This document shows positions 6,826 to 37,396 of a DNA stretch of 37,396 bases, piece by piece. The notes below the pieces were generated by a model. That model did no database searches and was not told the DNA's origin. It saw only the letters and a program-made list of their open reading frames with translations. Source of the stretch: Candidatus Paralachnospira avium (GTDB taxonomy: Bacteria > Bacillota > Clostridia > Lachnospirales > Lachnospiraceae); assembly GCA_904420245.1 (NCBI GenBank), contig CAJFUL010000019.1, positions 1 through 37,396 on the forward strand, given 5' to 3'. Positions within the stretch are counted from its first letter, which is position 1; each line of letters opens with the position of its first letter. Made by a program: the position numbers and the translations under genes.

Positions 6826-7992
6826 ATGAGACGGAAATGGACAGAAGCAGGGATCCTGCTGGTGATCCTGGCGGTCATGGCGGCTCTGATGTGGAGCTTT
6901 ACGAGGCAGGATTACCAGTATGAGAGATATGAGACGGGAAGCGTCCACTATGTAAAGGCAAGGACCACCGAGATCCTGGAACAGGAACTGACCGTATCCG
7001 GAAGCGGAGGCGAGTACCTGACCGGATACCAGAAGCTGGTGGTGGAGTTCCTGGAGGGAGACAGAAAAGGAGAGACCCAGGAAATAGAAAACTATGTGAC
7101 GGTCCAGCACCATGTGATCGCGGAGGAGGGACGGACCCTGATCATATGCGCCGATGAGCCGGACAATGCGGAGCCTTACTACAGCGTCTACAACTACAGC
7201 CGCGGAAACGGCATCTGGATCCTGGCGGCAGGCTTCCTGCTGCTGGTGGTCCTGGTGGGAAGGAAGCAGGGATTTTTGAGCTGCGTGGGTCTGCTGTTCA
7301 CCATGTGTATGGTCTTTTGCTACCTGCTCCCTCAGCTGTATAACGGAGCAGGCGGATTCGGGGCCTCCGCCGTGACGGTGATCGCCTCCTGCGCGGCCAC
7401 CTGCTTCTGCATAGGCGGCCTCACCAGGAAGACCCTCTTCAACATCGTCAGCGCCGTCGCAGGCGGGCTGTCGGCAGGCGTGCTCTTCTGGATCTGCGCC
7501 ATGGTCCTGGAGCTGAACGGATGCACCATGGATGAGGCGGAAAGCCTGGTGCTGATCGCCCAGTCCACGGGCCTTAAGCTGGAAAGCGTGCTGTACGCGG
7601 GAGTCATGGTCTCGTCCCTGGGAGCCGTGATGGATATAGCCGTCTCCATGGGAGCGTCTCTCCATGAGATCGTTTCCCTGAACCCGGAGCTGACCTGGAA
7701 GGATCTGTTCCGTTCCGGAATGAACATCGGGCGGGACGCCATCGGTACCATGACCAATACCCTGATCCTGGCCTTCGCCGGAGGAGCTTTAGCCACGCTG
7801 CTGATCCTGATCTCCTACGGCGTCCAGTATAATCAGCTGCTTTCGTCCAATTTCCTGGCGCTGGAGATCGCCCAGGGACTGGCGGGAAGCGCGGCGATCG
7901 TTCTGACTGTGCCCATCAGCGCGTGGATCAACGCGTGGGGCTACAGCCTTTCACATAGACAATCTAAAAATCATGGAGGAGAACAACAATGA
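6826..7992 (+). CDS. YibE/F family multispanning membrane protein
   Basis: A 388-residue membrane protein of the YibE/F type. It has an N-terminal transmembrane helix (about 9-25), an extracytoplasmic domain (about 26-128) rich in beta-type segments, then seven or so hydrophobic helices (about 130-375) ending IAQGLAGSAAIVLTVPISAWINAW, the typical C-terminal pattern of the family. The molecular function of YibE/F proteins is not established. AAGGAG lies 11 bases before the ATG. The stop overlaps the next gene as ATGA and that gene's GGAGGAG site is inside this coding sequence, so the two are co-translated. Pairing with two surface phosphoesterases is notable. Confidence 0.85.
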   Translation: MRRKWTEAGILLVILAVMAALMWSFTRQDYQYERYETGSVHYVKARTTEILEQELTVSGSGGEYLTGYQKLVVEFLEGDRKGETQEIENYVTVQHHVIAEEGRTLIICADEPDNAEPYYSVYNYSRGNGIWILAAGFLLLVVLVGRKQGFLSCVGLLFTMCMVFCYLLPQLYNGAGGFGASAVTVIASCAATCFCIGGLTRKTLFNIVSAVAGGLSAGVLFWICAMVLELNGCTMDEAESLVLIAQSTGLKLESVLYAGVMVSSLGAVMDIAVSMGASLHEIVSLNPELTWKDLFRSGMNIGRDAIGTMTNTLILAFAGGALATLLILISYGVQYNQLLSSNFLALEIAQGLAGSAAIVLTVPISAWINAWGYSLSHRQSKNHGGEQQ

Positions 7993-10169
7993 AAAAATGG
8001 AAGCGATTGTTTGTGGCAGCCCTGGCAGGGATCATGACCCTGACGGCGGGAGCCTCTCTGGCTCCGGCCGGACAGGCGGAAGCAGCCGGGGAAGAGGCCA
8101 TTTTGGATCTGGATACGGTCTGGAAATATCTGGATGACAATACGGACCCGGCAGGAAGCGGAGAGAGGACCAGCTGGACTCTGGAAGGCTTTGACGACAG
8201 CCAGTGGAAGACAAACGAAGGCCATCAGGCCAAATTCGGCGCGAAGAACGGCGAGATCCGGGATCTGGGAGGCGGCTGCACGCCGGAAGTGCTCCTGAAC
8301 CAGTACATAAACGGACAGAGCGGGGACGACGTTCCGGCCTTTTTCTTCCGCACCAGCTTTGAACTGGCTGAGGTGCCGGAGAATGTGGAGATAAAAGGCG
8401 CCCTGAAATATGACGATGCGGCCATCGTCTATATCAACGGGACGAAGGTGGCTTCTTTTGACGAGCCCCAGGGCGGATTTGACAGCAACTTATCCTATGG
8501 CGGTTCCAACGACAGCAGTCCCAAGGATGCGAGCTTTACGGCGGACGCCTCTGTCCTGAAGACCGGGACCAACGTGGTGGCCGTGGAGCTGCACCAGGGC
8601 AGGGCCAGCAGCTCCGATATTTACTTTGAGCTGTCTTCCCTGACCCTTGAGGAAAAGGTGCAGGTGGATCCCGGCGCTCTGACTCAGAAATCCATCTCCC
8701 TGACGGTGGGAGCCGATTCCACCTCCAGGAACATCACCTGGTATGCCAACAGCGACAAGCAGGGTACCGTTCAGTACGCGCCCAAGTCTGGCGAAGCGTT
8801 CCCGGCCCAGTATGAAGAGGCGGCTGCCAAGGTACAGGCTGCCAATGACAGCGGTTTTTACAGCAACCAGGCGACGATGACAGGTCTGGCTCCCAACACC
8901 GAGTATGTGTACCGTCTGGTCAATGAGAGCACCGTATCGGAAGTGTACAGCTTTAAGACAGGAGGCACCGGAGATTTCAGCTTCCTTCTGGCAGGCGATC
9001 CCCAGATCGGCGCCGGCAGCACAGCTTCCGACATCGAAGGGTGGGAGGATACTCTGAACAAGGCGGCGGCAGCATTCCCGGATGCCAGCTTCCTCATCAG
9101 CGCCGGCGACCAGGTAAACACGGCTTCCAATGAGGAGCAGTATACCGGCTATCTGGAGCACGCGGCGCTCACGGGACTGACTACGGCTACGGTGGTGGGA
9201 AACCATGACAGCGGCAGCAATTCCTACAGCCAGCATTTCAACAATCCCAATGTGACGGCTTATGGAACGACCACGGCAGGAAGCGACTACTGGTACGTCT
9301 ATAATAATGTACTGTTCCTGAACCTCAATTCCAACAATATGAGCACTGCGGAACACAAGGCCTTTATGCAGGAGGCCATCGAAGCCAACCAGGATGTGGA
9401 CTGGAAGGTGGTGGTCTTCCATCACTCTCTGTTCAGCGTAGCCAGCCATGCCTATGACGGCGACATCCTCCAGAGGAGAAACGAGTTGGTGCCCGTACTG
9501 GATGAACTGGATATCGACGTGGTGCTGATGGGCCATGACCATGTATATGTAAGAAGCTATATGATGAACGGCTTTACGCCGGAGACAACGGAAACGGTGG
9601 AGAGCAGCGTGACAGATCCGGAGGGTATCCTCTATGTCACCGTCAATTCCGCCAGCGGCAGCAAGTACTACAACATCCAGAATGCGGAATTCGACTACGC
9701 GGCAGTGAAGAGCCAGGAGAGAGTTCCCAATATCTCCAATGTGGAGGTGACGGAGGATTCCTTCAAGATCACCACCTACAGAACCAGCGATATGAGTGTG
9801 GTGGATACCTTTGAGATCCTGCGGACGGCTCAGACCGAGGAACCCACAGAGCCCAGCACGGACCCTACGGAGCCCAGCACAGAGCCCACAGAGCCCAGCA
9901 CGGACCCCACGGAGCCCAGCACGGAGCCTACAGAGCCCAGTACGGAACCCAGCACGGAGGAGACGAAGCCCAGCACAGAGGAGACCAAGGCGCCCGTTTC
10001 CGGTAACGGCGGCAATGGTTCCGGACAGGATGGAAAAGGAAACGGCGGCGTTTTCACCGGCGATCCTCAGAATCTGATCCTCTGGACAGGCCTCCTGGCG
10101 GCGGCGGGCATCGCAGCGGCAGGAACAGCAGTCACATTCCGCAAGAGACATCATGAAGAGACCAAATAG
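7989..10169 (+). CDS. Cell-wall-anchored purple-acid-phosphatase-like metallophosphoesterase
   Basis: A 726-residue secreted enzyme. Signal peptide 1-33 (ends GQAEAA). Residues about 40-225 look like a galactose-binding jelly-roll (WKYLDDNTDPAGSG, GFDDSQW, DDAAIVYINGTKV). A fibronectin-like purple acid phosphatase N-domain follows (about 230-325). The catalytic domain (about 329-550) shows the metal motifs LLAGDPQ, SAGDQVN, VGNHDSG, VVFHHSLF and MGHDHVYVRS. Then come Pro/Thr/Ser/Glu repeats (about 617-667), a TGDP motif, a hydrophobic helix and RKRHHEE, a sorting-signal-like tail for sortase. It should hydrolyse phosphate esters outside the cell; the substrate is unknown. Overlaps the YibE/F gene by four bases. 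Confidence 0.9.
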   Translation: MKKWKRLFVAALAGIMTLTAGASLAPAGQAEAAGEEAILDLDTVWKYLDDNTDPAGSGERTSWTLEGFDDSQWKTNEGHQAKFGAKNGEIRDLGGGCTPEVLLNQYINGQSGDDVPAFFFRTSFELAEVPENVEIKGALKYDDAAIVYINGTKVASFDEPQGGFDSNLSYGGSNDSSPKDASFTADASVLKTGTNVVAVELHQGRASSSDIYFELSSLTLEEKVQVDPGALTQKSISLTVGADSTSRNITWYANSDKQGTVQYAPKSGEAFPAQYEEAAAKVQAANDSGFYSNQATMTGLAPNTEYVYRLVNESTVSEVYSFKTGGTGDFSFLLAGDPQIGAGSTASDIEGWEDTLNKAAAAFPDASFLISAGDQVNTASNEEQYTGYLEHAALTGLTTATVVGNHDSGSNSYSQHFNNPNVTAYGTTTAGSDYWYVYNNVLFLNLNSNNMSTAEHKAFMQEAIEANQDVDWKVVVFHHSLFSVASHAYDGDILQRRNELVPVLDELDIDVVLMGHDHVYVRSYMMNGFTPETTETVESSVTDPEGILYVTVNSASGSKYYNIQNAEFDYAAVKSQERVPNISNVEVTEDSFKITTYRTSDMSVVDTFEILRTAQTEEPTEPSTDPTEPSTEPTEPSTDPTEPSTEPTEPSTEPSTEETKPSTEETKAPVSGNGGNGSGQDGKGNGGVFTGDPQNLILWTGLLAAAGIAAAGTAVTFRKRHHEETK
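9838..9984 (+). repeat. In-frame repeats encoding EPTEPST/DPTEPST wall-spanning linker
   Basis: Degenerate 12- and 24-base units (GAGCCCAGCACGGA..., GAGCCCACAGAGCCC) encode a run of TEPS/TDPTEPS units. They form a flexible, probably wall-spanning linker before the membrane anchor. Such tracts can change length by slippage. Confidence 0.85.
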
Positions 10170-10178
10170 GAGACAGGA

Positions 10179-13100
10179 ATGAAAAAATACTGGAAAAAAG
10201 GAAAGAAAAGCCTTCTGGCTTTGGCTATGATGATCGTGACGGCCTTCACCGCCCTGCCGGTCCCGGCAGGGGCGGCGGAGCTGCCGGACGATACAGTGGG
10301 ACTGTATTTTGAACCTGCGTCCCTCCAGCCGGCATACTGCAACGCGATCTTTGTCAATGGAACCTTTTATAGTTATATCAACAGCGCGGAAGCCCAGACG
10401 GTGGAGATCCCCAAGGCCAATCTGGAGGAAGGAGAAAACACCATCACGTTTATCTGCGGCAGCAGCGCGACCAAGACTTACTACGATGAGACGGTGCCTC
10501 CGCAGACCAGGAACCACAATGATCCCAAGGTGAAGAATCTGAAGATCACCGTGGACGGAGCGGAATTTACGCCTTCCACCGTGACGGGACATTATATCAC
10601 CGATCAGACCATTCCGGCGGCGGAGAGCAGCAGGACGGAAACGGAAAACTATCAGGCGGATCATAACTATACTTTTGGAGACGGACAGCCGGGCGGGACT
10701 CCGCATCCGGCCAGCCTGACGATCCCCTATAAGATCGATTTCCTGTTCACTCTGGAGGGGATCGAAAATCAGGAGCCGGCGGAGCCTTATGCCTGGAACC
10801 TGGAAGAAAACGGGATCTATTCCGGCGCTGTGACCGTGGCGGCCGCGGCGGCCGATGAGGGAGAAGACCTGAAGCTTTTGGTAGACGGCCAGGAGGTCAC
10901 GGCCAAGGGAAATGGGACGGCTTCCTTCCGGTACAGTTCAAACGGGATCCAGGCCAACGATGGAAATAAGTTCCAGAACGGATTTTATGTCAACGGCACT
11001 CTGGCGGACATCCTCAATGAGAATGAGCCGGAGATCACACTGGATCCTTCTCTCCTCAAGTACGGGGAGGAAAATATCATCGCTCTCACCATCGGCAACG
11101 GCGACGGCCCCTATGATGAGAACAAAAACCCGGGAAGCGTCAACTATGACGACTTTTCCGTCAGCAATTTCCAGCTTCTTCTGCCGGACGGCGAGGTGGT
11201 GGAGCCGAAAACCGTCTATACCTACCAGGCTGTAGACCAGGATACGCCGGCGTCGGAGGAGAACATCAAAAAGGAGGAGGCTTACTCCGCGGGCAGGATC
11301 TTCGAGATGGGAGACGGCTTCCCGGCCGGAAGCGACCTCTCTCTGTATTACAAGATCGAGCTGGTGTACCAGGTACCCCAGATCAGCGATCAGATCCGCT
11401 ACTACGCGCTGGATACGGCTCTGTTTGAGGATGGGAGCCACACAGTGGAGCTTTCTTCAGACGGAGAGACCAGGAGGAGTACCACCGTCTTCTTCGATAA
11501 CCATGGACCGGAGCTTTCCGTAAACTTTGAGGAAGGAGCCGGACTGGAAGACGGTTTTGTGATCGAGGCCCAGGCTTCGGATGCGGTGTCCGGGGCGGGA
11601 GAGGTCAAGGCGTCGTTAAACGGCGTGGAAGCAGCGCTTCCCTATACCGTTTCCGTGGATGAGCTGGGAACAGGAAAGCAGTATCTGTCCATCTCCGCCG
11701 CCGACGGACAGGGAAACCAGAGCGGCGCCCAGTATACGTTCACCGTACAGGAGACCCAGACGGATGCCGGAAACACGGGCGGAGAAGAGGAGAACGACAG
11801 CTACCAGTTCCATGTGGAGACCCCGGAGACGGCTCAGGGCCCTCTGACAGTGGACTTCTACGGCGCGCAGATCTTAAAGACACAGGCTTATACAGGTCTT
11901 TCGGCCACCACCGATCTGGAAGCTCTGGATATATCCGGAGCGAAACCGGCGGAACCGGATGAGACAGGCTGGATCGAAGCAGCCGGCAGCGACGGGCTCC
12001 CTTATGAATTCTATGAGGTGCAGACAGACGGGGAGAGCGGTACCGTCCGGCTCTCTCTGGAAGCGGAGACGGTGACAGGCGAGACTTTGGCGTTTCTGAT
12101 CTATGAGCCTGCTTCCGGAAAGTGGGAGATCCTGGATAAGCAGGAGAGCGATGGAGGGGTCATGACCTTTACGGCAGATGTCTCCGCGGAGGATTACGCG
12201 CAGAACGGACTCATCCGGATAGCAGTGGCGCCTTTCCTGGTGGACAACGGGAGCGATACGCTGGCATGGATCAGCGATACCCAGTACTATACCCAGAGAC
12301 AGGAGCTGAAGGATGCCAAGATCTACGAGACCATGACCACCTGGCTGAAGGAGCAGTACGAGCAGGGGAATATTTCCTATGTGGCCCATACGGGAGACAT
12401 CGTGGAGACTTCTTCCAGCGAGGAGCAGTACATCTTTGCCAGCGGGGCTCAGGACGTCCTGGATGCGGCCGCGGTGCCCAATGGAGTGGTATCCGGAAAT
12501 CACGACGTGGGATCGGATATCGAGAATCTCAACTATGACCTGTATCAAAAATATTTCGGGGCTTTCCGGTATGAAGGCCAGGAATGGTACGGCGGTTCCT
12601 ACGGGGACAATACCAGCCATTACGACCTGGTGACGGTGGCGGGCCATGATATGATCATCCTCTATCTGGGAATGGGAAAAGAAGCCGGAGACGAGACGGT
12701 GGCCTGGGCCAATGACGTGCTGGACCAGTACAGCCACAGGACGGCCATCATCGCCACCCATGAGTACCTGAATCCCCAGGCGGATTTCATCACTTACGCC
12801 AGAGGAAAAGAGATCTTTGAAAAGATCATCGTCCCCAATGAGAACGTGGTGATGGTGCTCTGCGGTCATGATCCCGGAGCGGCCAGGAACATCCGTCAGG
12901 TGCCGGGAACAGACCGGCAGGTGGTGGAGATCCTGGCGGATTACCAGCATCAGGAAAACGGCGGAGACGGCTTCTTGAGGCTTCTGACCTTCTCGCAGGG
13001 CCAGATGACCAACAGGAGTTATTCACCGGTCACCGGGGAGACCGTCAGCTTCTCCGAGAGCCAGGATAATTTCACGGTGGAGCTTCCTCTGGTGGAAAAC

Positions 13101-13538
13101 AGGAGAGAAGTATCGGCAGGCGCGCTGTCGGCAGCCGTGATCCGGGAAGAGCCCTTTGCTTCCGTCCAGGCTGATCCGGGACAGGTGGCCCAGGCTTCCC
13201 TGGAAAAGACTCAGATCGATTTCAACGGCTGGTTCGCGGTGGTGACCGACGGAGCGGGACAGTCTGTGCATACCGATGTGGTGCCGTTTGAGGTGACTGT
13301 CGTGAAGCCGGATGAGAAGCCCTCCGGAGGAGAGGGAGAAAAACCCGGCGGCGGGACCCAGGATCCGGACGGAGGAAACGGACAGGAGACGGAGGCTCCC
13401 GGCCAGGGCGCTTCCGGCACGACTCCTTCCGACAGGCCCGTGACGGGAGATCCCGGTCTCTGGAGCCTGTGGGCCGTACTGGCGCTGGCCGGCGCCGGAA
13501 CAGCTCTCATAGTGAGCAGGAAGAAAAAAGAAGCATAA
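10179..13538 (+). CDS. Large cell-wall-anchored multidomain metallophosphoesterase
   Basis: A 1119-residue surface protein. Signal peptide 1-32 (VPAGAAE). Two related beta-rich modules of about 200 residues follow, each ending in a similar segment (YTFGDGQPGG...IPYKIDFLF near 163 and FEMGDGFPAG...LYYKIELVY near 373), then an Ig-like module (about 410-525) and a further beta domain (about 535-690). The phosphoesterase domain (about 694-940) has WISDTQYY, HTGDIVET, SGNHDVGSD and IATHEYLNP, but its last motif is CGHDPGAAR, where the usual second His of GHxH is Pro. The tail has a TGDP sorting-like motif, a helix and RKKKEA. GGAG lies eight bases before ATG. Likely co-transcribed with the previous two genes. 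Confidence 0.88.
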   Translation: MKKYWKKGKKSLLALAMMIVTAFTALPVPAGAAELPDDTVGLYFEPASLQPAYCNAIFVNGTFYSYINSAEAQTVEIPKANLEEGENTITFICGSSATKTYYDETVPPQTRNHNDPKVKNLKITVDGAEFTPSTVTGHYITDQTIPAAESSRTETENYQADHNYTFGDGQPGGTPHPASLTIPYKIDFLFTLEGIENQEPAEPYAWNLEENGIYSGAVTVAAAAADEGEDLKLLVDGQEVTAKGNGTASFRYSSNGIQANDGNKFQNGFYVNGTLADILNENEPEITLDPSLLKYGEENIIALTIGNGDGPYDENKNPGSVNYDDFSVSNFQLLLPDGEVVEPKTVYTYQAVDQDTPASEENIKKEEAYSAGRIFEMGDGFPAGSDLSLYYKIELVYQVPQISDQIRYYALDTALFEDGSHTVELSSDGETRRSTTVFFDNHGPELSVNFEEGAGLEDGFVIEAQASDAVSGAGEVKASLNGVEAALPYTVSVDELGTGKQYLSISAADGQGNQSGAQYTFTVQETQTDAGNTGGEEENDSYQFHVETPETAQGPLTVDFYGAQILKTQAYTGLSATTDLEALDISGAKPAEPDETGWIEAAGSDGLPYEFYEVQTDGESGTVRLSLEAETVTGETLAFLIYEPASGKWEILDKQESDGGVMTFTADVSAEDYAQNGLIRIAVAPFLVDNGSDTLAWISDTQYYTQRQELKDAKIYETMTTWLKEQYEQGNISYVAHTGDIVETSSSEEQYIFASGAQDVLDAAAVPNGVVSGNHDVGSDIENLNYDLYQKYFGAFRYEGQEWYGGSYGDNTSHYDLVTVAGHDMIILYLGMGKEAGDETVAWANDVLDQYSHRTAIIATHEYLNPQADFITYARGKEIFEKIIVPNENVVMVLCGHDPGAARNIRQVPGTDRQVVEILADYQHQENGGDGFLRLLTFSQGQMTNRSYSPVTGETVSFSESQDNFTVELPLVENRREVSAGALSAAVIREEPFASVQADPGQVAQASLEKTQIDFNGWFAVVTDGAGQSVHTDVVPFEVTVVKPDEKPSGGEGEKPGGGTQDPDGGNGQETEAPGQGASGTTPSDRPVTGDPGLWSLWAVLALAGAGTALIVSRKKKEA

Positions 13539-25079: not shown

Positions 25080-25521
25080 GAAGAAGGAACGCGGTACAGA
25101 GCGGACTCTGTACAGACTGGGGCTGGCGGCTATCCTGGTGATAGCCGCCGCTACGTTTTTTATCCGGCATTTTCATATATCCCTTTCGGGGCCGCTTTTC
25201 GCCTGCCCCATCCGCAGGCTGACGGGGCTGTTCTGTCCTGGCTGCGGCGGCAGCAGGGCTTTTTCTCTCCTGCTGCATGGAAAATTCCTCAGGAGTTTTC
25301 TCTGTCATCCGCTGGTCCCCTATGGGATGGCGGTGTTCGCGGTGTTCATGGCAAGCCATACTCTGGAGATCTTCACAAGAGGGAAAATACAGGGGATGAC
25401 TTATCGCCATATTTATATTAAAATAGCAGTAGTGCTTTTGATCCTGGATACTCTGGCCAAGAACGCGGCATGGCTGATCTTCCATGTGGACTTGACGGCT
25501 CTGGTATCCGGGACATTCTGA
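25072..25521 (+). CDS. DUF2752 membrane protein
   Basis: A 149-residue protein with three probable membrane helices (about 14-34, 76-96 and 115-140). It has the DUF2752 hallmark CPIRRLTGLFCPGCGGSRAF, a conserved Cys-Pro and CPGCGGSR pair. The family's function is unknown. The ATG at 25072 overlaps the lysC stop by eight bases; a TTG at 25060 is an alternative start. The ribosome site is poor, which suggests translational coupling to lysC. Its end is 14 bases before the tex start. Confidence 0.85.
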   Translation: MTEKKERGTERTLYRLGLAAILVIAAATFFIRHFHISLSGPLFACPIRRLTGLFCPGCGGSRAFSLLLHGKFLRSFLCHPLVPYGMAVFAVFMASHTLEIFTRGKIQGMTYRHIYIKIAVVLLILDTLAKNAAWLIFHVDLTALVSGTF

Positions 25522-25535
25522 CAGCGGAGGTTTTT

Positions 25536-27707
25536 ATGGACATTATACAGACCCTTTCTGATGAGCTGGGGATCCGGCGCGGTCAGGCTGATGCGGCCGT
25601 GAAGCTGATCGATGAGGGAAATACGATCCCGTTTATCGCTCGGTACCGGAAGGAGGCGACGGGCGCCCTCAGCGATGAGGTGCTGAGAAATCTGGACGAG
25701 CGGCTCCGGTATCTGCGGAACCTGGAGGAGAGGAAGTCCCAGGTGCTGGCCTCCATCGAGGAGCAGGGAGCGCTGACAAAGGAGCTGGAGGAGCAGATAC
25801 GGGCGGCGTCCGCCCTGGTGGAAGTGGAGGATCTGTACAGGCCCTACAGGCCGAAGCGCAGGACCAGGGCCACGGCGGCCAGGGAAAAAGGACTGGAGCC
25901 GCTGGCGGATCTTCTGATGCTCCAGAGCACCAGGCATCCCGCCCTGGTGGAGGCAGAGGCGTATGTCTCCGCGGAAAAGGGCGTGGAGACGGCGGAAGAG
26001 GCTCTGGCCGGGGCCGGGGATATCCTGGCGGAGAGGATCTCGGATGAGGCGGCATACAGGAGCCGGATCCGGGAACTGACTTTCCGGAAGGGGCTCCTGG
26101 CCTCCCAGGCCAAGGATCCGGAGGAAAAATCCGTCTACGAGATGTACTACGGCTATGAGGAGCCGGTGAAGAAGGCGGCCGGCCACAGGATCCTGGCTCT
26201 GAACCGGGGAGAAAAGGAGAAGCTTCTGACGGTCCGGGTGGAGGCGCCGGAGGAGGAGATCCTGCGGTATCTGGAGAAGCGGGTGTTAGTCAGGGAAGAT
26301 CCCAACACCTCTCCTTTTCTGCGGGAAGTGGTGAGGGACAGCTACGAACGGCTCATAGAGCCCTCCATAGAACGGGAAGTGCGCGCCGGCCTCACGGAGA
26401 CTGCCGAGGAGGGCGCCATCCAGGTCTTCGGAGAGAATTTAAAGCAGCTCCTCATGCAGCCGCCCATCGCCGGACAGGTGGTGCTGGGCTGGGATCCGGC
26501 CTTCCGTACAGGCTGCAAGCTGGCGGTGGTGGATGCCACCGGAAAGGTGTTAGATACGACGGTGATCTATCCTACGGCGCCCCAGAACAAGGTGACAGAG
26601 GCAAAGGCTGTCCTGAAGAAGCTGATCCGCAGATACGGGATCACGCTGATCGCCGTGGGCAACGGCACCGCCTCCAGGGAGTCGGAGCGGATCATCGTGG
26701 AGTTTCTGAAGGAGATACCGGAGAAGGTCCAGTATGTCATCGTCAATGAGGCGGGAGCTTCTGTGTATTCGGCCAGCAAGGCGGGGACAGAAGAGTTCCC
26801 GGATTTCGACGTGGCGCAGCGCAGCGCCGTTTCCATCGCCAGGAGGCTCCAGGACCCTCTGGCGGAGTTGGTGAAGATCGAGCCCAGATCCATCGGAGTG
26901 GGCCAGTACCAGCATGATATGAACCAGAAGAGGCTGGATGAGACGCTGAAAGGCGTGGTGGAGGACTGCGTGAACCGGGTAGGAGTGGATCTGAATACGG
27001 CCTCTGCTTCTCTGTTGGGCTACGTCTCCGGCATCACCAAGACCACCGCGAAAAATATCGTGGCCTACCGGGAGGAGCACGGCGCTTTTGAGGACAGGCG
27101 GCAGCTTTTGAAGGTGAAGGGGCTGGGGCCCAAGGCCTTCCTCCAGTGCGCCGGGTTCCTCAGGATCTCCGGAGGCAGCGAGCCTCTGGACGGCACGGGA
27201 GTCCATCCGGAGTCTTATCCTGCGGTGGACAAGCTCCTTGGACGGCTGGGCTTTCAAAAAGAACAGCTGGCAGGAGGCGGCCTTTCCGGGATCTCCCGCA
27301 GGGTGGCGGATCTTCCGGAGACGGCGCGGGAGCTCGGTATAGGAGAGATCACGCTGAGGGACATCCTGACGGAGTTGGAGAAGCCGGCCAGGGATCCGAG
27401 GGACGAGATGCCGAAACCCATCCTGCGGACGGATGTGCTGGAGCTTGCGGACTTAAAGCCCGGCATGGTCCTCAAGGGGACGGTGCGCAATGTCATCGAT
27501 TTCGGCGCCTTCGTGGATATCGGAGTCCATCAGGACGGGCTGGTGCATATTTCCCAGATGAGCGACAAGTTCATCCGCCATCCGCTGGAGGCGGTCCATG
27601 TGGGGGACATCGTGGATGTGCAGGTCATGAGCGTGGACCTTTCCAGGAAACGGATCCAGCTGACCATGAAGCTGGGAAAAAAGGAGGAAGATCATGGAAA
27701 ACGTTAA
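25536..27707 (+). CDS. tex: Tex family RNA-binding transcription accessory protein
   Basis: A 723-residue Tex protein, close to the usual length. It has the Tex N-domain (about 1-190: IPFIARYRKEATGALSDEVL, EDLYRPYRPKRRTRATAAREKGLEPLADLL in parts), a YqgF/RNase H-like domain (about 320-450: GWDPAFRTGCKLAVVD), helix-hairpin-helix repeats (about 480-560: LNTASASLLGYVSGITKTTA, LLKVKGLGPKAFLQCAG) and a C-terminal S1 domain (about 640-715: GMVLKGTVRNVIDFGAFVDIG). Tex binds nucleic acids and influences transcription. The ATG at 25536 follows GGAGG; a longer upstream frame adds 22 residues with no family match. Confidence 0.96.
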   Translation: MDIIQTLSDELGIRRGQADAAVKLIDEGNTIPFIARYRKEATGALSDEVLRNLDERLRYLRNLEERKSQVLASIEEQGALTKELEEQIRAASALVEVEDLYRPYRPKRRTRATAAREKGLEPLADLLMLQSTRHPALVEAEAYVSAEKGVETAEEALAGAGDILAERISDEAAYRSRIRELTFRKGLLASQAKDPEEKSVYEMYYGYEEPVKKAAGHRILALNRGEKEKLLTVRVEAPEEEILRYLEKRVLVREDPNTSPFLREVVRDSYERLIEPSIEREVRAGLTETAEEGAIQVFGENLKQLLMQPPIAGQVVLGWDPAFRTGCKLAVVDATGKVLDTTVIYPTAPQNKVTEAKAVLKKLIRRYGITLIAVGNGTASRESERIIVEFLKEIPEKVQYVIVNEAGASVYSASKAGTEEFPDFDVAQRSAVSIARRLQDPLAELVKIEPRSIGVGQYQHDMNQKRLDETLKGVVEDCVNRVGVDLNTASASLLGYVSGITKTTAKNIVAYREEHGAFEDRRQLLKVKGLGPKAFLQCAGFLRISGGSEPLDGTGVHPESYPAVDKLLGRLGFQKEQLAGGGLSGISRRVADLPETARELGIGEITLRDILTELEKPARDPRDEMPKPILRTDVLELADLKPGMVLKGTVRNVIDFGAFVDIGVHQDGLVHISQMSDKFIRHPLEAVHVGDIVDVQVMSVDLSRKRIQLTMKLGKKEEDHGKR

Positions 27708-33086: not shown

Positions 33087-33192
33087 ACGAAACAGTCCGC
33101 CTCAGGCTGCGGCTGACAGGCGGATGTATTTTGCCCTTTCCGGGCGCGGGGATCTCGGCAGTTGAGATTTGTGGAAAATGGAGGGAAGCATC

Positions 33193-34704
33193 ATGTCTAT
33201 GATAAAAGTTGAAGATCTGACCTTTTCTTATCCGGGGAGCTTTGACGACGTGTTTGAGGATTGCAGCTTTCAGATCGATACCGACTGGAAGCTGGGGTTC
33301 GTCGGAAGGAATGGGAAGGGAAAGACCACGTTCCTGAGGCTTTTGATGGGAGAATATGAATACAGCGGGAAGATCATAAGCTCCGTGCCTTTTCAGTATT
33401 TTCCGTATCCGGTGGAAGATGCAGGGCAGGATACGCTGGAGGTCCTGGGCGGCATCTGTCCGGCGGCGCAGGAATGGGAATTCTTGCGGGAATTTTCCTA
33501 TCTGGAGCTGCCTCCGGAGCTTCTCTGGAGGCCTTTTGGGACCCTCTCCGGCGGAGAACAGACGAAGGCGCTTTTGGCGGGCCTTTTTCTCAACGAGGGG
33601 AGCTTCCTGCTCATCGACGAGCCCACCAATCATCTGGATACGGAGGGCAGGGAGCTGCTGGCCGGTTATCTGAAGAGAAAAAAGGGATTTATCCTGGTCT
33701 CCCATGACCGCCGCTTCCTGGATGGATGTACCGATCATATCCTTTCGCTGAACAGGGCGACCATCGACGTCCGGAGCGGGAATTTTTCTTCGTGGATGGC
33801 GGATTTTGAGCGGCAGCAGTCCAGTGAACGGGCCAGAAATGAGAAGCTGAAAAAAGACATCCGCAGCCTGGAACAGGCGGCCAGGCGGGCCTCCGGCTGG
33901 TCGGACCGGACAGAGGCGGGGAAGTATGGGAACGGTCCCGTGGACCGGGGATATGTGGGCCATAAGGCGGCCAAGCTGATGAAACGCTCCAAGGCCATAG
34001 AGGCCAGGAGAAATCAGGCGGCGGAGGAAAAGGCCGGGCTTCTGAAGGATGAGGAGACGGCAGAGCGGCTTAAGATCTGTCCTCTTGTCCATCACAAGGA
34101 GGTCCTGCTTTCCGTTTCGGAGGCGGCGGTCTGCTACGGAGGCCGCGCCGTCAGCGAGCCGGTTTCCTTTGAAGTGAGGCAGGGGGAGCGGATCCTCTTA
34201 GACGGCAGGAACGGGAGCGGGAAGAGCAGCCTTCTGAAGCTCCTGGCCGGAGAAGCGCTGGATCACAGGGGGACAGTCGTCAGGGCCTCCGGCCTGACCA
34301 TCTCCTATGTGCCCCAGGATACTTCTTTTCTAAAGGGGAGCCTCACGGACCTGGCCGGGGAATACGGCATCGACGAGACGCTGTTCAGAGCGGTTCTCCG
34401 CAAGCTGGATCTTGAACGGACGCAGTTTGAAAAGCCTATGGAGGAGTATTCCGGCGGCCAGAAGAAGAAGGTGCTGATCGCGAAGAGCTTATGCGAAAAG
34501 GCCCATCTCTATCTGTGGGATGAGCCTTTGAACTTCATTGATATTTATTCCAGGATGCAGATCGAGAGACTCCTTCAGGAGTTTCCCTTCACCATGATCT
34601 TTGTGGAGCATGACCGGGCTTTCCAGGATCTGATCCCGTCAAAGAGGATCCATATAAAGGGCCTCGGACAGCAGAGAGGTCATTCCCTGCCGTCCCAGCA
34701 GTAA
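33193..34704 (+). CDS. Lsa/CplR-like ABC-F ribosomal protection protein
   Basis: A 503-residue soluble ABC-F protein with two ATPase domains and no membrane segment. Domain 1 has GRNGKGKTT, LSGGEQTKALLA and LLIDEPTNHLD; domain 2 has GRNGSGKSS, YSGGQKKKVLIAK and LWDEPLNFIDIYSRMQIE. The inter-domain linker (about 210-300) contains ASGWSDRTEAGKYG and VDRGYVGHKAAKLMKRSKAIE, typical of Lsa-type proteins that dislodge lincosamides, pleuromutilins and streptogramin A from the ribosome. Drug range cannot be read from sequence. ATG 33193 is chosen because GGAGGG lies seven bases before it. The 3' end overlaps the convergent purF-like gene by 25 bases. Confidence 0.9.
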   Translation: MSMIKVEDLTFSYPGSFDDVFEDCSFQIDTDWKLGFVGRNGKGKTTFLRLLMGEYEYSGKIISSVPFQYFPYPVEDAGQDTLEVLGGICPAAQEWEFLREFSYLELPPELLWRPFGTLSGGEQTKALLAGLFLNEGSFLLIDEPTNHLDTEGRELLAGYLKRKKGFILVSHDRRFLDGCTDHILSLNRATIDVRSGNFSSWMADFERQQSSERARNEKLKKDIRSLEQAARRASGWSDRTEAGKYGNGPVDRGYVGHKAAKLMKRSKAIEARRNQAAEEKAGLLKDEETAERLKICPLVHHKEVLLSVSEAAVCYGGRAVSEPVSFEVRQGERILLDGRNGSGKSSLLKLLAGEALDHRGTVVRASGLTISYVPQDTSFLKGSLTDLAGEYGIDETLFRAVLRKLDLERTQFEKPMEEYSGGQKKKVLIAKSLCEKAHLYLWDEPLNFIDIYSRMQIERLLQEFPFTMIFVEHDRAFQDLIPSKRIHIKGLGQQRGHSLPSQQ

Positions 34705-36086
34705 GTGCACAGCTTGTCTTTGGCAATGCCGACGGATTCGATCATATCGTCCAGCCGGTGATAGCGCAGAGAGGTGAAGTCCAGCTTCTGGCCGATGCGG
34801 CGCACCATCTCCTGGTATTCCTCCGTTTCCGGATCGGCATAGGCCTCCAGATGGGCGAACTTGTCGTTGGCTTCCATCTCTTTTATGACCTGGCGGGTGA
34901 TCAGGTCCATCTCCGAGGAGGAACGGGAGAAATTCAGGTACTTGCAGCCGTACAGCAGAGGCGGACAAGCCGGGCGGATATGGACTTCCTTGGCTCCGCT
35001 CTGGTAGAGGAACTGGGTGGTTTCCCGCATCTGAGTGCCGCGGACGATGGAATCGTCAATCAGAAGGAGGCGCCGTCCCTGGATCAGATCGTGGACTGGG
35101 ATCAGCTTCATCCTGGCGATCAGGTTCCGCTGGGTCTGGATCGTGGGCATGAAGGAGCGGGGCCAGGTGGGCGTATATTTGATGAAAGGACGGCTGAAGG
35201 GGATGCCAGATTCATTGGCATACCCTACGGCGTGGGCGGTCCCGGAATCGGGGACTCCCGCCACGGTGTCCGGCTGGGCATCATCGCGTCTGGCCAGCAT
35301 GGCTCCGCAGTTGTAGCGCATCTTTTCCACGCTGATCCCTTCGTAGGAGGAGGAGGGATAGCCGTAGTAGACCCAGAGGAAAGTGCAGATCTTCATATCC
35401 TTTCCGGGCTGCACCAGGGTCTTTACATACTCTGGCGTGACCACGGCGATCTCGCCGGGGCCCAGCTCCCGGTACTCCGTATAGCCCAGATTCAGATAGG
35501 CAAAGCTCTCAAAGGAAACGCAGTAGCCGTTTTCTTTTTTCCCGATGGCCACGGGGGTGCGGCCCATCTTGTCCCTGGCGGCATAGATGCCCTTGGGCGT
35601 CATCAGCAGGATGGTCATGGAGCCGTCGATCAGCTCCTGAGCGTACTGGATGCCTTCTATTAGATTCTCCTTCTGGTTGATGACGGCCGCCACCAGCTCG
35701 GTGGCGTTGATCAGGCCTCCCCGCATCTCAAAGAAATGGGAGTGGGAGGTCTCCAGGAGCTTATTGACAATGGCTTCCGTATTGTTGATCTTTCCCACAG
35801 TGGTGATGGCGTAAGTGCCGTGGTGGGAACGGATCACCAGAGGCTGAGGTTCATAGTCGGAGATGCAGCCGAGTCCCATCTGGCCGTGCATGGAATTGGC
35901 ATCTCGGTCGAATTTGGTCCGGAACGGGGAATTCTCGATGTTGTGGATAGCCCGGTCGAAACCATCCTTTTTGTCATAGGTCACCATACCGGCCCGTCTG
36001 GTCCCCAGATGAGAATGATAGTCGGTTCCGAAAAACAGATCAAATACACAGTCGCTCTTGGAAGCGACGCCAAAAAATCCTCCCAT
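34680..36086 (-). CDS. Glutaminase-dead PurF-like phosphoribosyltransferase
   Basis: A 468-residue PurF homologue. The PRPP loop LLLIDDSIVRGTQM (about 340-353), PDSGTAHAVGYANESGIPF and four cysteines matching the B. subtilis Fe-S ligands (C234, C381, C460, C463; C-terminal CTYC) are present. The N-terminal glutaminase is degenerate: the mature start is GGFFGVAS where PurF has the nucleophile CGVFG; the RYSTAG region reads MGLGCIS; the oxyanion HNGN reads TVGK. GGAGG lies eight bases before ATG 36086, and no alternative start would create an N-terminal Cys. Probably not a classical glutamine amidotransferase; role unknown. Confidence 0.88.
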   Translation of the reverse strand: MGGFFGVASKSDCVFDLFFGTDYHSHLGTRRAGMVTYDKKDGFDRAIHNIENSPFRTKFDRDANSMHGQMGLGCISDYEPQPLVIRSHHGTYAITTVGKINNTEAIVNKLLETSHSHFFEMRGGLINATELVAAVINQKENLIEGIQYAQELIDGSMTILLMTPKGIYAARDKMGRTPVAIGKKENGYCVSFESFAYLNLGYTEYRELGPGEIAVVTPEYVKTLVQPGKDMKICTFLWVYYGYPSSSYEGISVEKMRYNCGAMLARRDDAQPDTVAGVPDSGTAHAVGYANESGIPFSRPFIKYTPTWPRSFMPTIQTQRNLIARMKLIPVHDLIQGRRLLLIDDSIVRGTQMRETTQFLYQSGAKEVHIRPACPPLLYGCKYLNFSRSSSEMDLITRQVIKEMEANDKFAHLEAYADPETEEYQEMVRRIGQKLDFTSLRYHRLDDMIESVGIAKDKLCTYCWDGRE

Positions 36087-36226
36087 AGTCTTTTCCTCCA
36101 AATTGTCTGATGTGAAGTCCCGGCGCGCCATGCGCCGGTGTGCGTGCGCCGGCCTGCAGCCAGGCAGATCCGGACGCGGGCGGAGATGGATCTATACACG
36201 CTCCGCGTTGTTTTACAACTGGTATC

Positions 36227-37312: not shown

Positions 37313-37396
37313 GGAGAGGTATCGAAGTGGTCATAACGAGGCGGTCTTGAAAACCGTTTGTCCGCAAGGGCGCGTGGGTTCGAATCCCACCCTCTC
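37313..37396 (+). tRNA. tRNA-Ser (anticodon UGA), 3' end cut by window edge
   Basis: The acceptor strand GGAGAGG pairs with CCTCTC at the window end, and the final bases lie outside. The anticodon arm CGGT-CTTGAAA-ACCG has TGA at 37348-37350. A long variable arm (TTTGTCCGCAAGGGCGC) marks a class II tRNA, and the T arm is GTGGG-TTCGAAT-CCCAC. It reads UCN-type serine codons. Confidence 0.95.

What the first reader, a model, noticed from the sequence alone, without database searches (positions are those of the whole stretch)
34680..36086. PurF paralogue that keeps PRPP loop and Fe-S cysteines but has lost the glutaminase active site
The N-terminal nucleophile Cys is Gly (MGGFFGVAS), the Arg-containing RYSTAG motif and the HNGN oxyanion motif are replaced, while the PRPP loop DDSIVRGT and cysteines C234, C381, C460 and C463 remain. 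Classical PurF needs Cys1 after propeptide or Met removal. Loss of the whole glutaminase site with retention of the transferase and cluster suggests an ammonia-dependent enzyme, a regulator of PurF, or a phosphoribosyltransferase with another nucleophile.
Basis: partly seen in the sequence, partly recalled or inferred. Interest (0 to 1): 0.75.

Follow-up and report, generated by a model that had tools for sequence, protein, structure and literature searches.

The report
PurF-like enzyme lacking its glutaminase
Many gut and anaerobic bacteria carry a relative of the first enzyme of purine synthesis that has lost the parts needed to use glutamine, and some of them appear to have no other version of that enzyme, which suggests that they start making purines from free ammonia instead.

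Summary
The 468-residue protein at 34680-36086 (-) is a full-length PurF homologue without a glutaminase site: Cys1 is Gly (Ser in 10 of 100 aligned relatives), Arg26 is Leu, the glutamine loop is deleted, Asn101 and Asp127 are replaced. PRPP-loop, PPi-loop and Fe-S residues are invariant or nearly so. It is a separate clade, found in 115 of 393 sampled genomes of the class and 28 of 398 of the phylum. The window's genome also has a canonical purF. Of 156 other genomes carrying the paralogue, 39 show no PurF over the family cut-off, yet 35 of those 39 keep purD. Of 80 control genomes without the paralogue, 13 show no PurF, and none of the 13 has a full purD. In 11 of 34 PurF-less loci the paralogue stands directly before purM; in single-contig G268 it lies in a contiguous purE-to-purL cluster with no other PurF found. 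Best reading: a phosphoribosylamine synthase using free ammonia, sole or beside PurF. Catalysis is inferred, not measured. Archaeal PurF' is a published precedent, also lacking Cys1 and suggested, untested, to be ammonia-dependent. The replacement evidence is what is new here.

The parts
34680..36086 (-). CDS of the glutaminase-less PurF paralogue (468 aa plus stop)
   Evidence: NCBIfam TIGR01134 196 bits, below its cut-off of 350; AF2 model pLDDT 89.9, pTM 0.88, best PDB match B. subtilis PurF 1ao0, TM 0.83/0.85
36095..36099 (-). Shine-Dalgarno-like GGAGG, 8 nt before the ATG
   Evidence: read from sequence
36081..36083 (-). Codon of Gly2, at the place of the Ntn nucleophile Cys1
   Evidence: Gly 90, Ser 10 of 100
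36000..36023 (-). DYHSHLGT (residues 22-29), family signature at the place of canonical ...QHRGQ; R26 replaced by Leu27
   Evidence: D22, S25, H26, L27 100 of 100 (H26 is also His in canonical PurF)
35856..35870 (-). GCISD (residues 73-77), where the glutamine loop R73-G78 of E. coli PurF is deleted
   Evidence: I75 and D77 100 of 100, C74 86 of 100
35781..35798 (-). VGKINN (residues 97-102), in place of the HNGN oxyanion motif
35385..35387 (-). Cys234, Fe-S ligand position
   Evidence: 100 of 100
35241..35252 (-). PDSG (residues 279-282), PPi loop, retained
35151..35180 (-). KYTPTWPRSF (residues 303-312), rewritten PRTase flexible loop with inserted Trp308; K326 and R332 equivalents retained
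35034..35057 (-). DDSIVRGT (residues 344-351), PRPP loop, retained
34944..34946 (-). Cys381, Fe-S ligand position
   Evidence: 100 of 100
34698..34709 (-). C460-T-Y-C463, Fe-S ligand positions
   Evidence: both Cys 100 of 100

Best explanation
The protein is a phosphoribosylamine (PRA) synthase of the PurF fold whose glutaminase half has been dismantled. It makes PRA from PRPP and free ammonia. In some genomes it is the only first-step enzyme of de novo purine synthesis. In others, including the window's, it accompanies canonical glutamine-dependent PurF as a second isozyme. Shown here: loss of the glutaminase site; retention of PRPP, PPi and Fe-S residues; separate clade; linkage to purine genes in many genomes; retention of purD in genomes where it is the only PurF homologue found. 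Inferred: catalysis, ammonia as the nitrogen source, and the isozyme role where both exist.
For: (1) Substitution: 39 of 156 paralogue-bearing genomes have no PurF over the TIGR01134 cut-off (28 of 80, 11 of 76). Of these, 35 of 39 have purD and 35 of 39 have purM. Control: of 80 class genomes without the paralogue, 13 have no PurF match at E<=1e-35, and none of the 13 has a purD over cut-off (one has a partial purD); all 65 purD-bearing control genomes have PurF, 63 whole and 2 in fragments. Fisher 35/39 against 0/13, p about 4e-9, not corrected for kinship. (2) Position: in 11 of 34 PurF-less loci examined the gene stands directly before purM, in 9 of the 11 with purE called upstream (34th locus). 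Single-contig G268 reads purE-purC-paralogue-purM-purN/O fusion-purB-purH-purD-purL with no other PurF found (purH of G268 by its likeness to the same gene in G442, which NCBIfam names). (3) Most PRTase residues listed are invariant in 100 of 100 rows. (4) E. coli PurF with Cys1 changed is reported to lose glutamine use but still use ammonia (PMC3261824, section 6, read). (5) The model matches PurF over its full length.
Against: No activity data. Most of the 39 PurF-less genomes are draft assemblies, so some purF genes may lie in gaps (for example G229, whose near-identical relative G151 has purF; G004, G006, G009 and G016 are below 90% complete). The printed hit lists end at about 108 and 115 bits, so short purF fragments below that are not excluded. 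The control used a stricter threshold (1e-35) than (1e-20). PRA may arise by other routes in purF mutants (PMC3485032, start of abstract in the search listing; rest recalled). The flexible loop that closes over PRPP is rewritten and Tyr329 is lost, so the reaction may differ. In most genomes canonical PurF is also present (117 of 156), where an ammonia isozyme is not obviously needed. 4 of 39 PurF-less genomes lack purD. In 23 of 34 PurF-less loci the gene is not directly before purM.
Confidence: 0.67

Rival explanations
1. PRA synthase, but the nitrogen comes through a partner glutaminase or a new site built in the old glutaminase pocket (invariant D22, S25, H26, H48, R56, D77, nearly invariant H24; H26 is also His in canonical PurF) rather than from free ammonia.
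For: The N-terminal domain is kept and carries its own invariant residues. Over the whole protein 23 invariant positions never match canonical PurF; one of them, M1, is an artefact of my writing M for GTG/TTG starts.
Against: No cysteine of the N-terminal domain is invariant: PurF-less G106 has none of C13, C74, C189. No glutaminase gene was recognised as a constant neighbour, but most neighbouring genes were not annotated, so a partner is not excluded; carB is adjacent only in some families.
Confidence: 0.13
2. Inactive pseudoenzyme that regulates or assembles with canonical PurF, like HisZ with HisG (recalled analogy).
For: In 127 loci with a gene call, a gene of the PurF/paralogue cluster lies two upstream in 27 and purB directly upstream in 43; canonical purF is next to it in G404 and G224 and in G140 (coordinates).
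Against: 39 of 156 holders show no canonical PurF; 35 of these keep purD. PRPP and PPi loop residues are invariant or nearly so, not relaxed.
Confidence: 0.1
3. Phosphoribosyltransferase with another acceptor, outside or beside IMP synthesis.
For: Rewritten flexible loop with invariant Trp308, and new invariants R299, E254, Q352.
Against: Gene order puts it in the purF slot in several families. Under this reading the PurF-less, purD-bearing genomes would have no known PRA source.
Confidence: 0.09
4. PurF absence is an assembly artefact and the paralogue is a minor accessory protein.
For: Most genomes are draft assemblies; several PurF-less ones have close relatives with purF (for example G229 and G151; G191, G335, G275 and G225).
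Against: 0 of 65 purD-bearing control genomes lack PurF entirely, 2 of 65 have it in fragments. Single-contig G268, two-contig G442, and 4 of 4 sampled genomes of genus g108 lack it. At least 11 changes of the label are forced by starred branches of the tree.
Confidence: 0.05

Closest known systems
Canonical PurF (glutamine PRPP amidotransferase, B. subtilis type, EC 2.4.2.14)
   Same: Whole fold (TM 0.83/0.85 to 1ao0), PRPP loop, PPi loop, four Fe-S cysteine positions, purine-operon position in many genomes
   Different: No nucleophile, Arg26, glutamine loop, Asn101 or Asp127; no leader that exposes a Cys; rewritten flexible loop; 29% identity to the PurF of the same genome
PurF' of Crenarchaeota (PMC3261824, 2011; passages, section 6 read)
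   Same: PurF homologue without the N-terminal Cys, near purine genes, beside a normal PurF; the authors name an ammonia-dependent enzyme as one possibility, to be tested
   Different: There each Crenarchaeon studied has both genes, many PurF' with Ala or Val; here Gly or Ser, the glutamine loop deleted, and many genomes with no canonical PurF found.
Ammonia-dependent versus glutamine-dependent NAD synthetase (PMC3376133, start of abstract in the listing)
   Same: One family with ammonia-using and glutamine-using forms (title and abstract start)
   Different: Unrelated fold; the ammonia-only forms lack the glutaminase domain altogether (recalled), whereas here the domain remains as a shell without its known catalytic residues

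Membership tests
Canonical glutamine-dependent PurF (TIGR01134) | Score over the curated NCBIfam cut-off (350 bits) | tested here: not met
   196.2 bits
Canonical glutamine-dependent PurF (TIGR01134) | N-terminal Cys nucleophile after Met or propeptide removal | tested here: not met
   Gly/Ser in 100 of 100 rows; no alternative start in the window
Canonical glutamine-dependent PurF (TIGR01134) | Glutamine loop Arg73, oxyanion Asn101, Asp127 (roles recalled) | tested here: not met
   loop deleted in 100 of 100; N101 and D127 replaced
PurF fold and PRTase half | PRPP loop, PPi loop, Lys326, Arg332, Lys349 equivalents | tested here: met
PurF fold and PRTase half | Full-length structural match to PurF | tested here: met
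B. subtilis-type PurF | Four Fe-S cysteine positions | tested here: met
   100 of 100; the cluster itself is not testable here
Ammonia-dependent PRA synthase | Only PurF homologue found in genomes that keep the downstream pathway | tested here: met
   35 of 39 with purD against 0 of 13 in control
Ammonia-dependent PRA synthase | PRA formation from PRPP plus NH3 | not testable with these tools
   needs enzymology
Archaeal PurF' | Falls with crenarchaeal PurF' in a tree | not tested

The most novel reading that the evidence does not exclude
A large part of one bacterial phylum has a second, ammonia-driven entry into purine synthesis: a PurF whose glutaminase domain has been dismantled and whose old pocket carries a new conserved Asp/His/Arg set, and which has displaced glutamine-dependent PurF repeatedly.
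Probability: 0.5. Interest if true: 0.75.

Novelty: new variant of a known kind. Interest (0 to 1): 0.66.

Why it matters
The first committed step of purine synthesis is usually described as glutamine-dependent. A glutaminase-less PurF as the only enzyme of that step would show that ammonia can feed purine synthesis directly in ammonia-rich anaerobic habitats. It would also change how purine prototrophy is predicted for such bacteria (the window's paralogue scores below the curated PurF cut-off) and give a bacterial test of the ammonia-dependence idea published for archaeal PurF'.

Tried and rejected
Alternative start giving CGxFG: none. Pseudogene or decay: rejected, since the paralogue hits listed have no stops inside and nearly all span the full length, with 67% mean column identity over 74 sequences. 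Regulator of PurF only: disfavoured by PurF-less genomes. A cysteine elsewhere in the N-domain as nucleophile: rejected as a general rule, since G106 has none of C13, C74 and C189. RNA switch in front of the gene: none over Rfam gathering scores in the window, only one tRNA. Finer structural alignment (pdb_via): library absent. Literature: the listings of searches showed no paper on this bacterial family; the archaeal precedent is PMC3261824 (passages, section 6). The library holds open-licence papers only.

Limits: greedy longest-ORF gene calling hid some genes behind antisense ORFs (for example purH and purD in L283, recovered), and most neighbouring genes were not annotated. Five of the 39 PurF-less genomes (G004, G006, G009, G016, G020) were not looked at for gene order around the paralogue, and several of the 34 loci looked at are cut by contig ends. 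The tree is a quick search, drawn with a midpoint root, and the tool warned of long branches (E. coli PurF, one other canonical row, para_L208x) and of a possible false join of E. coli PurF with the paralogues. Kinship of genomes was not corrected in the Fisher test. Phyla other than the window's were not sampled.

Full report
OBSERVATION. The upstream start used by the ORF list (36131) leads into the same MGGFFG, so no start yields an N-terminal CGxFG. The genome also holds a canonical purF with a leader before CGVFG (C13:3738-5087, 520 bits), 29% identical to the paralogue. The paralogue scores 196 bits against TIGR01134, below its cut-off of 350.

WHAT WAS LOST AND KEPT. I aligned 100 paralogue sequences, 34 of them from genomes in which no canonical PurF was found, with 41 canonical PurFs and E. 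coli PurF (E. coli DNA). In the glutaminase half, Cys1 is Gly (90) or Ser (10), Arg26 is Leu in all, Arg73-Tyr74-Thr76-Gly78 is deleted in all, Asn101 is Val/Ile/Thr/Ala/Leu, and Asp127 is variable. The roles of Arg26, Arg73, Asn101 and Asp127 in glutamine use are recalled. The glutamine loop, PRPP loop, PPi loop and flexible loop are described in PMC7056826 (passages). In the transferase half, Lys326, Arg332, Arg342, Lys349, Tyr258, Asp367, Ser368 and Val370 to Thr373 are kept in all rows, Asp366 in 99 and Ile369 in 98. All four Fe-S cysteine positions are kept in 100 of 100. The flexible loop is rewritten to KYTPTWPRSF, with Trp308 inserted in all rows and Tyr329 lost. The family has its own invariant residues that never match the canonical rows, among them Asp22, Ser25, Leu27, His48, Arg56, Asp77, Arg176, Trp238, Glu254, Arg299, Tyr304, Trp308 and Gln352. 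No cysteine of the N-terminal domain is invariant; PurF-less G106 has none of C13, C74 and C189.

STRUCTURE AND TREE. An AlphaFold2 model built from 74 family members has mean pLDDT 89.9 and pTM 0.88. Its best solved matches are PurF structures over the full length: 1ao0 TM 0.83/0.85, 6lbp 0.84/0.85, E. coli entries about 0.8. In a quick maximum-likelihood tree of 119 rows (100 paralogues, 19 canonical after thinning), all 100 paralogues lie on one side of a branch with SH-aLRT support 100, well separated from canonical PurF. The tool warned of long branches there, E. coli PurF above all.

DISTRIBUTION. Paralogue hits are sharply separated from other hits: in the class sample all whole paralogues score above 670 bits, the pieces of two split ones 328 to 567, and the best other hit 247. 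The paralogue is in 28 of 61 close relatives, including all 11 of the genus counting the window's own (54 of the 61 match something at E<=1e-3, the remaining 26 of those by hits of about 130 to 200 bits, the range of canonical PurF). It is in 115 of 393 genomes of the class (recounted; the window's own genome included, two in fragments) and 28 of 398 of the phylum sample, 19 of these outside the class. In one search, 326 stretches encode a relative and the best 80 were kept; their record titles are mostly Lachnospiraceae.

GENE NEIGHBOURS. In 127 loci with a gene call (of 134 tried), purB is the gene directly upstream in 43, and a gene of the PurF/paralogue cluster lies two upstream in 27 (names). 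In other families the gene lies in purE-purC-[paralogue]-purM-purN-purO-purH-purD operons, in G404 and G224 with canonical purF directly after it. Families of chosen neighbours were checked with NCBIfam and Pfam; many other neighbours were not annotated. In many genomes, the window's among them, no purine gene was recognised beside it.

REPLACEMENT OF PURF. I searched 156 genomes that hold the paralogue for TIGR01134: 52 of 80 and 65 of 76 have a PurF over the cut-off, so 39 do not. Left out of the 156 were the window's genome (which has purF) and two genomes with fragmentary paralogues (G366, G069). Of the 39, 35 have purD and 35 have purM. The 35 with purD fall into 26 genera and 18 families by the group codes. 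Control: 80 class genomes without the paralogue. PurF is over cut-off in 65, in fragments in 2, without a match at E<=1e-35 in 13; purD is over cut-off in 65. All 65 purD-bearing genomes have PurF, whole (63) or in fragments (2), and none of the 13 PurF-less genomes has a full purD (G096 has a partial one). Fisher's exact test of 35/39 against 0/13 gives p about 4e-9, ignoring kinship. PurF-less genomes include single-contig G268, two-contig G442, and all four sampled genomes of genus g108. The printed lists end near 108 and 115 bits, so short purF fragments are not excluded.

In 11 of 34 PurF-less loci (G074, G174, G306, G367, G106, G129, G352, G323, G261, G442, G268) the paralogue stands directly before purM, and in 9 of these 11 (not G352 and G442) purE was called upstream. 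In the other 23 it is not directly before purM; examples are beside purC (G372, G296), near carB (G191, G335, G435), or after purC-purB (G440). In G268 the stretch reads purE, purC, paralogue, purM, a purN-purO fusion, purB, purH, purD, purL (purD). In others (for example G158, G144, G336, G075, G105, G170, G233, G216, G191) the purine operon is contiguous without a purF and the paralogue lies elsewhere, so there is no assembly gap at that place. On the tree the PurF-less label needs 21 changes, at least 11 of them forced by starred branches. Some of these may be assembly gaps, for example G229 beside G151.

MECHANISM. The most economical reading is a PRA synthase fed by free ammonia: the transferase site stays, the glutaminase goes. 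Changing Cys1 of E. coli PurF abolishes glutamine use while ammonia still serves (PMC3261824, citing its reference 22; section 6 read). Where canonical PurF is also present, the paralogue may be the isozyme for ammonia-rich conditions; that is inference. Against the reading: no activity data, a changed flexible loop, and draft assemblies.

PRECEDENT. PMC3261824 (2011) described PurF' in Crenarchaeota, lacking Cys1 and near PurF, and named an ammonia-dependent enzyme as one possibility to be tested. Each Crenarchaeon studied there has both genes. The new points here are a bacterial clade with the glutamine loop deleted and the repeated absence of canonical PurF from genomes that keep the pathway. 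Whether the two are related was not tested. The listings of searches showed no paper on the bacterial family.

VERDICT. A real, conserved, widely spread variant of PurF, most likely an ammonia-dependent PRA synthase (confidence 0.67). Not a member of glutamine-dependent PurF by the tested criteria, but it probably works at the same pathway step.

Noticed in passing
window 33169-34704 (+): ABC-F protein, convergent with the paralogue and overlapping its 3' end by 25 bases; over the cut-off for the ribosomal protection-like ABC-F family (456 against 380) but below that for Lsa (687 against 750).
   Followed up: partly
window 7989-10169, 10179-13538 and 25470-27707 (+): Three long ORFs (726, 1119 and 745 aa) with no NCBIfam match at E<=1e-40.
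   Followed up: no
L198, L209-L212, L231, L233; L199 with one small ORF between: In some families carB (carbamoyl-phosphate synthase large subunit, another ammonia-using enzyme) lies upstream of the paralogue on the same strand.
   Followed up: partly
L283:6715-8145 and L284:10230-11672: purN-purO fusion (formyl transferase plus IMP cyclohydrolase-like domain) in G268 by Pfam; an ORF of about the same size stands at the same place in G442.
   Followed up: partly
L193:5585-6307 and relatives: PurO-type IMP cyclohydrolase-like protein (PF07826) together with a separate AICAR formyltransferase (PRK07106) in these bacterial operons.
   Followed up: partly
G087:C3:1435572, G139:C1:1266791, L247: purD in open frames of about 1640 aa and a purH-like frame of 1654 aa, possibly fused purine genes.
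   Followed up: no
G637:C67 and G637:C49: Two paralogue copies in one genome.
   Followed up: no
window 37313-37396 (+): tRNA gene cut by the window end.
   Followed up: no
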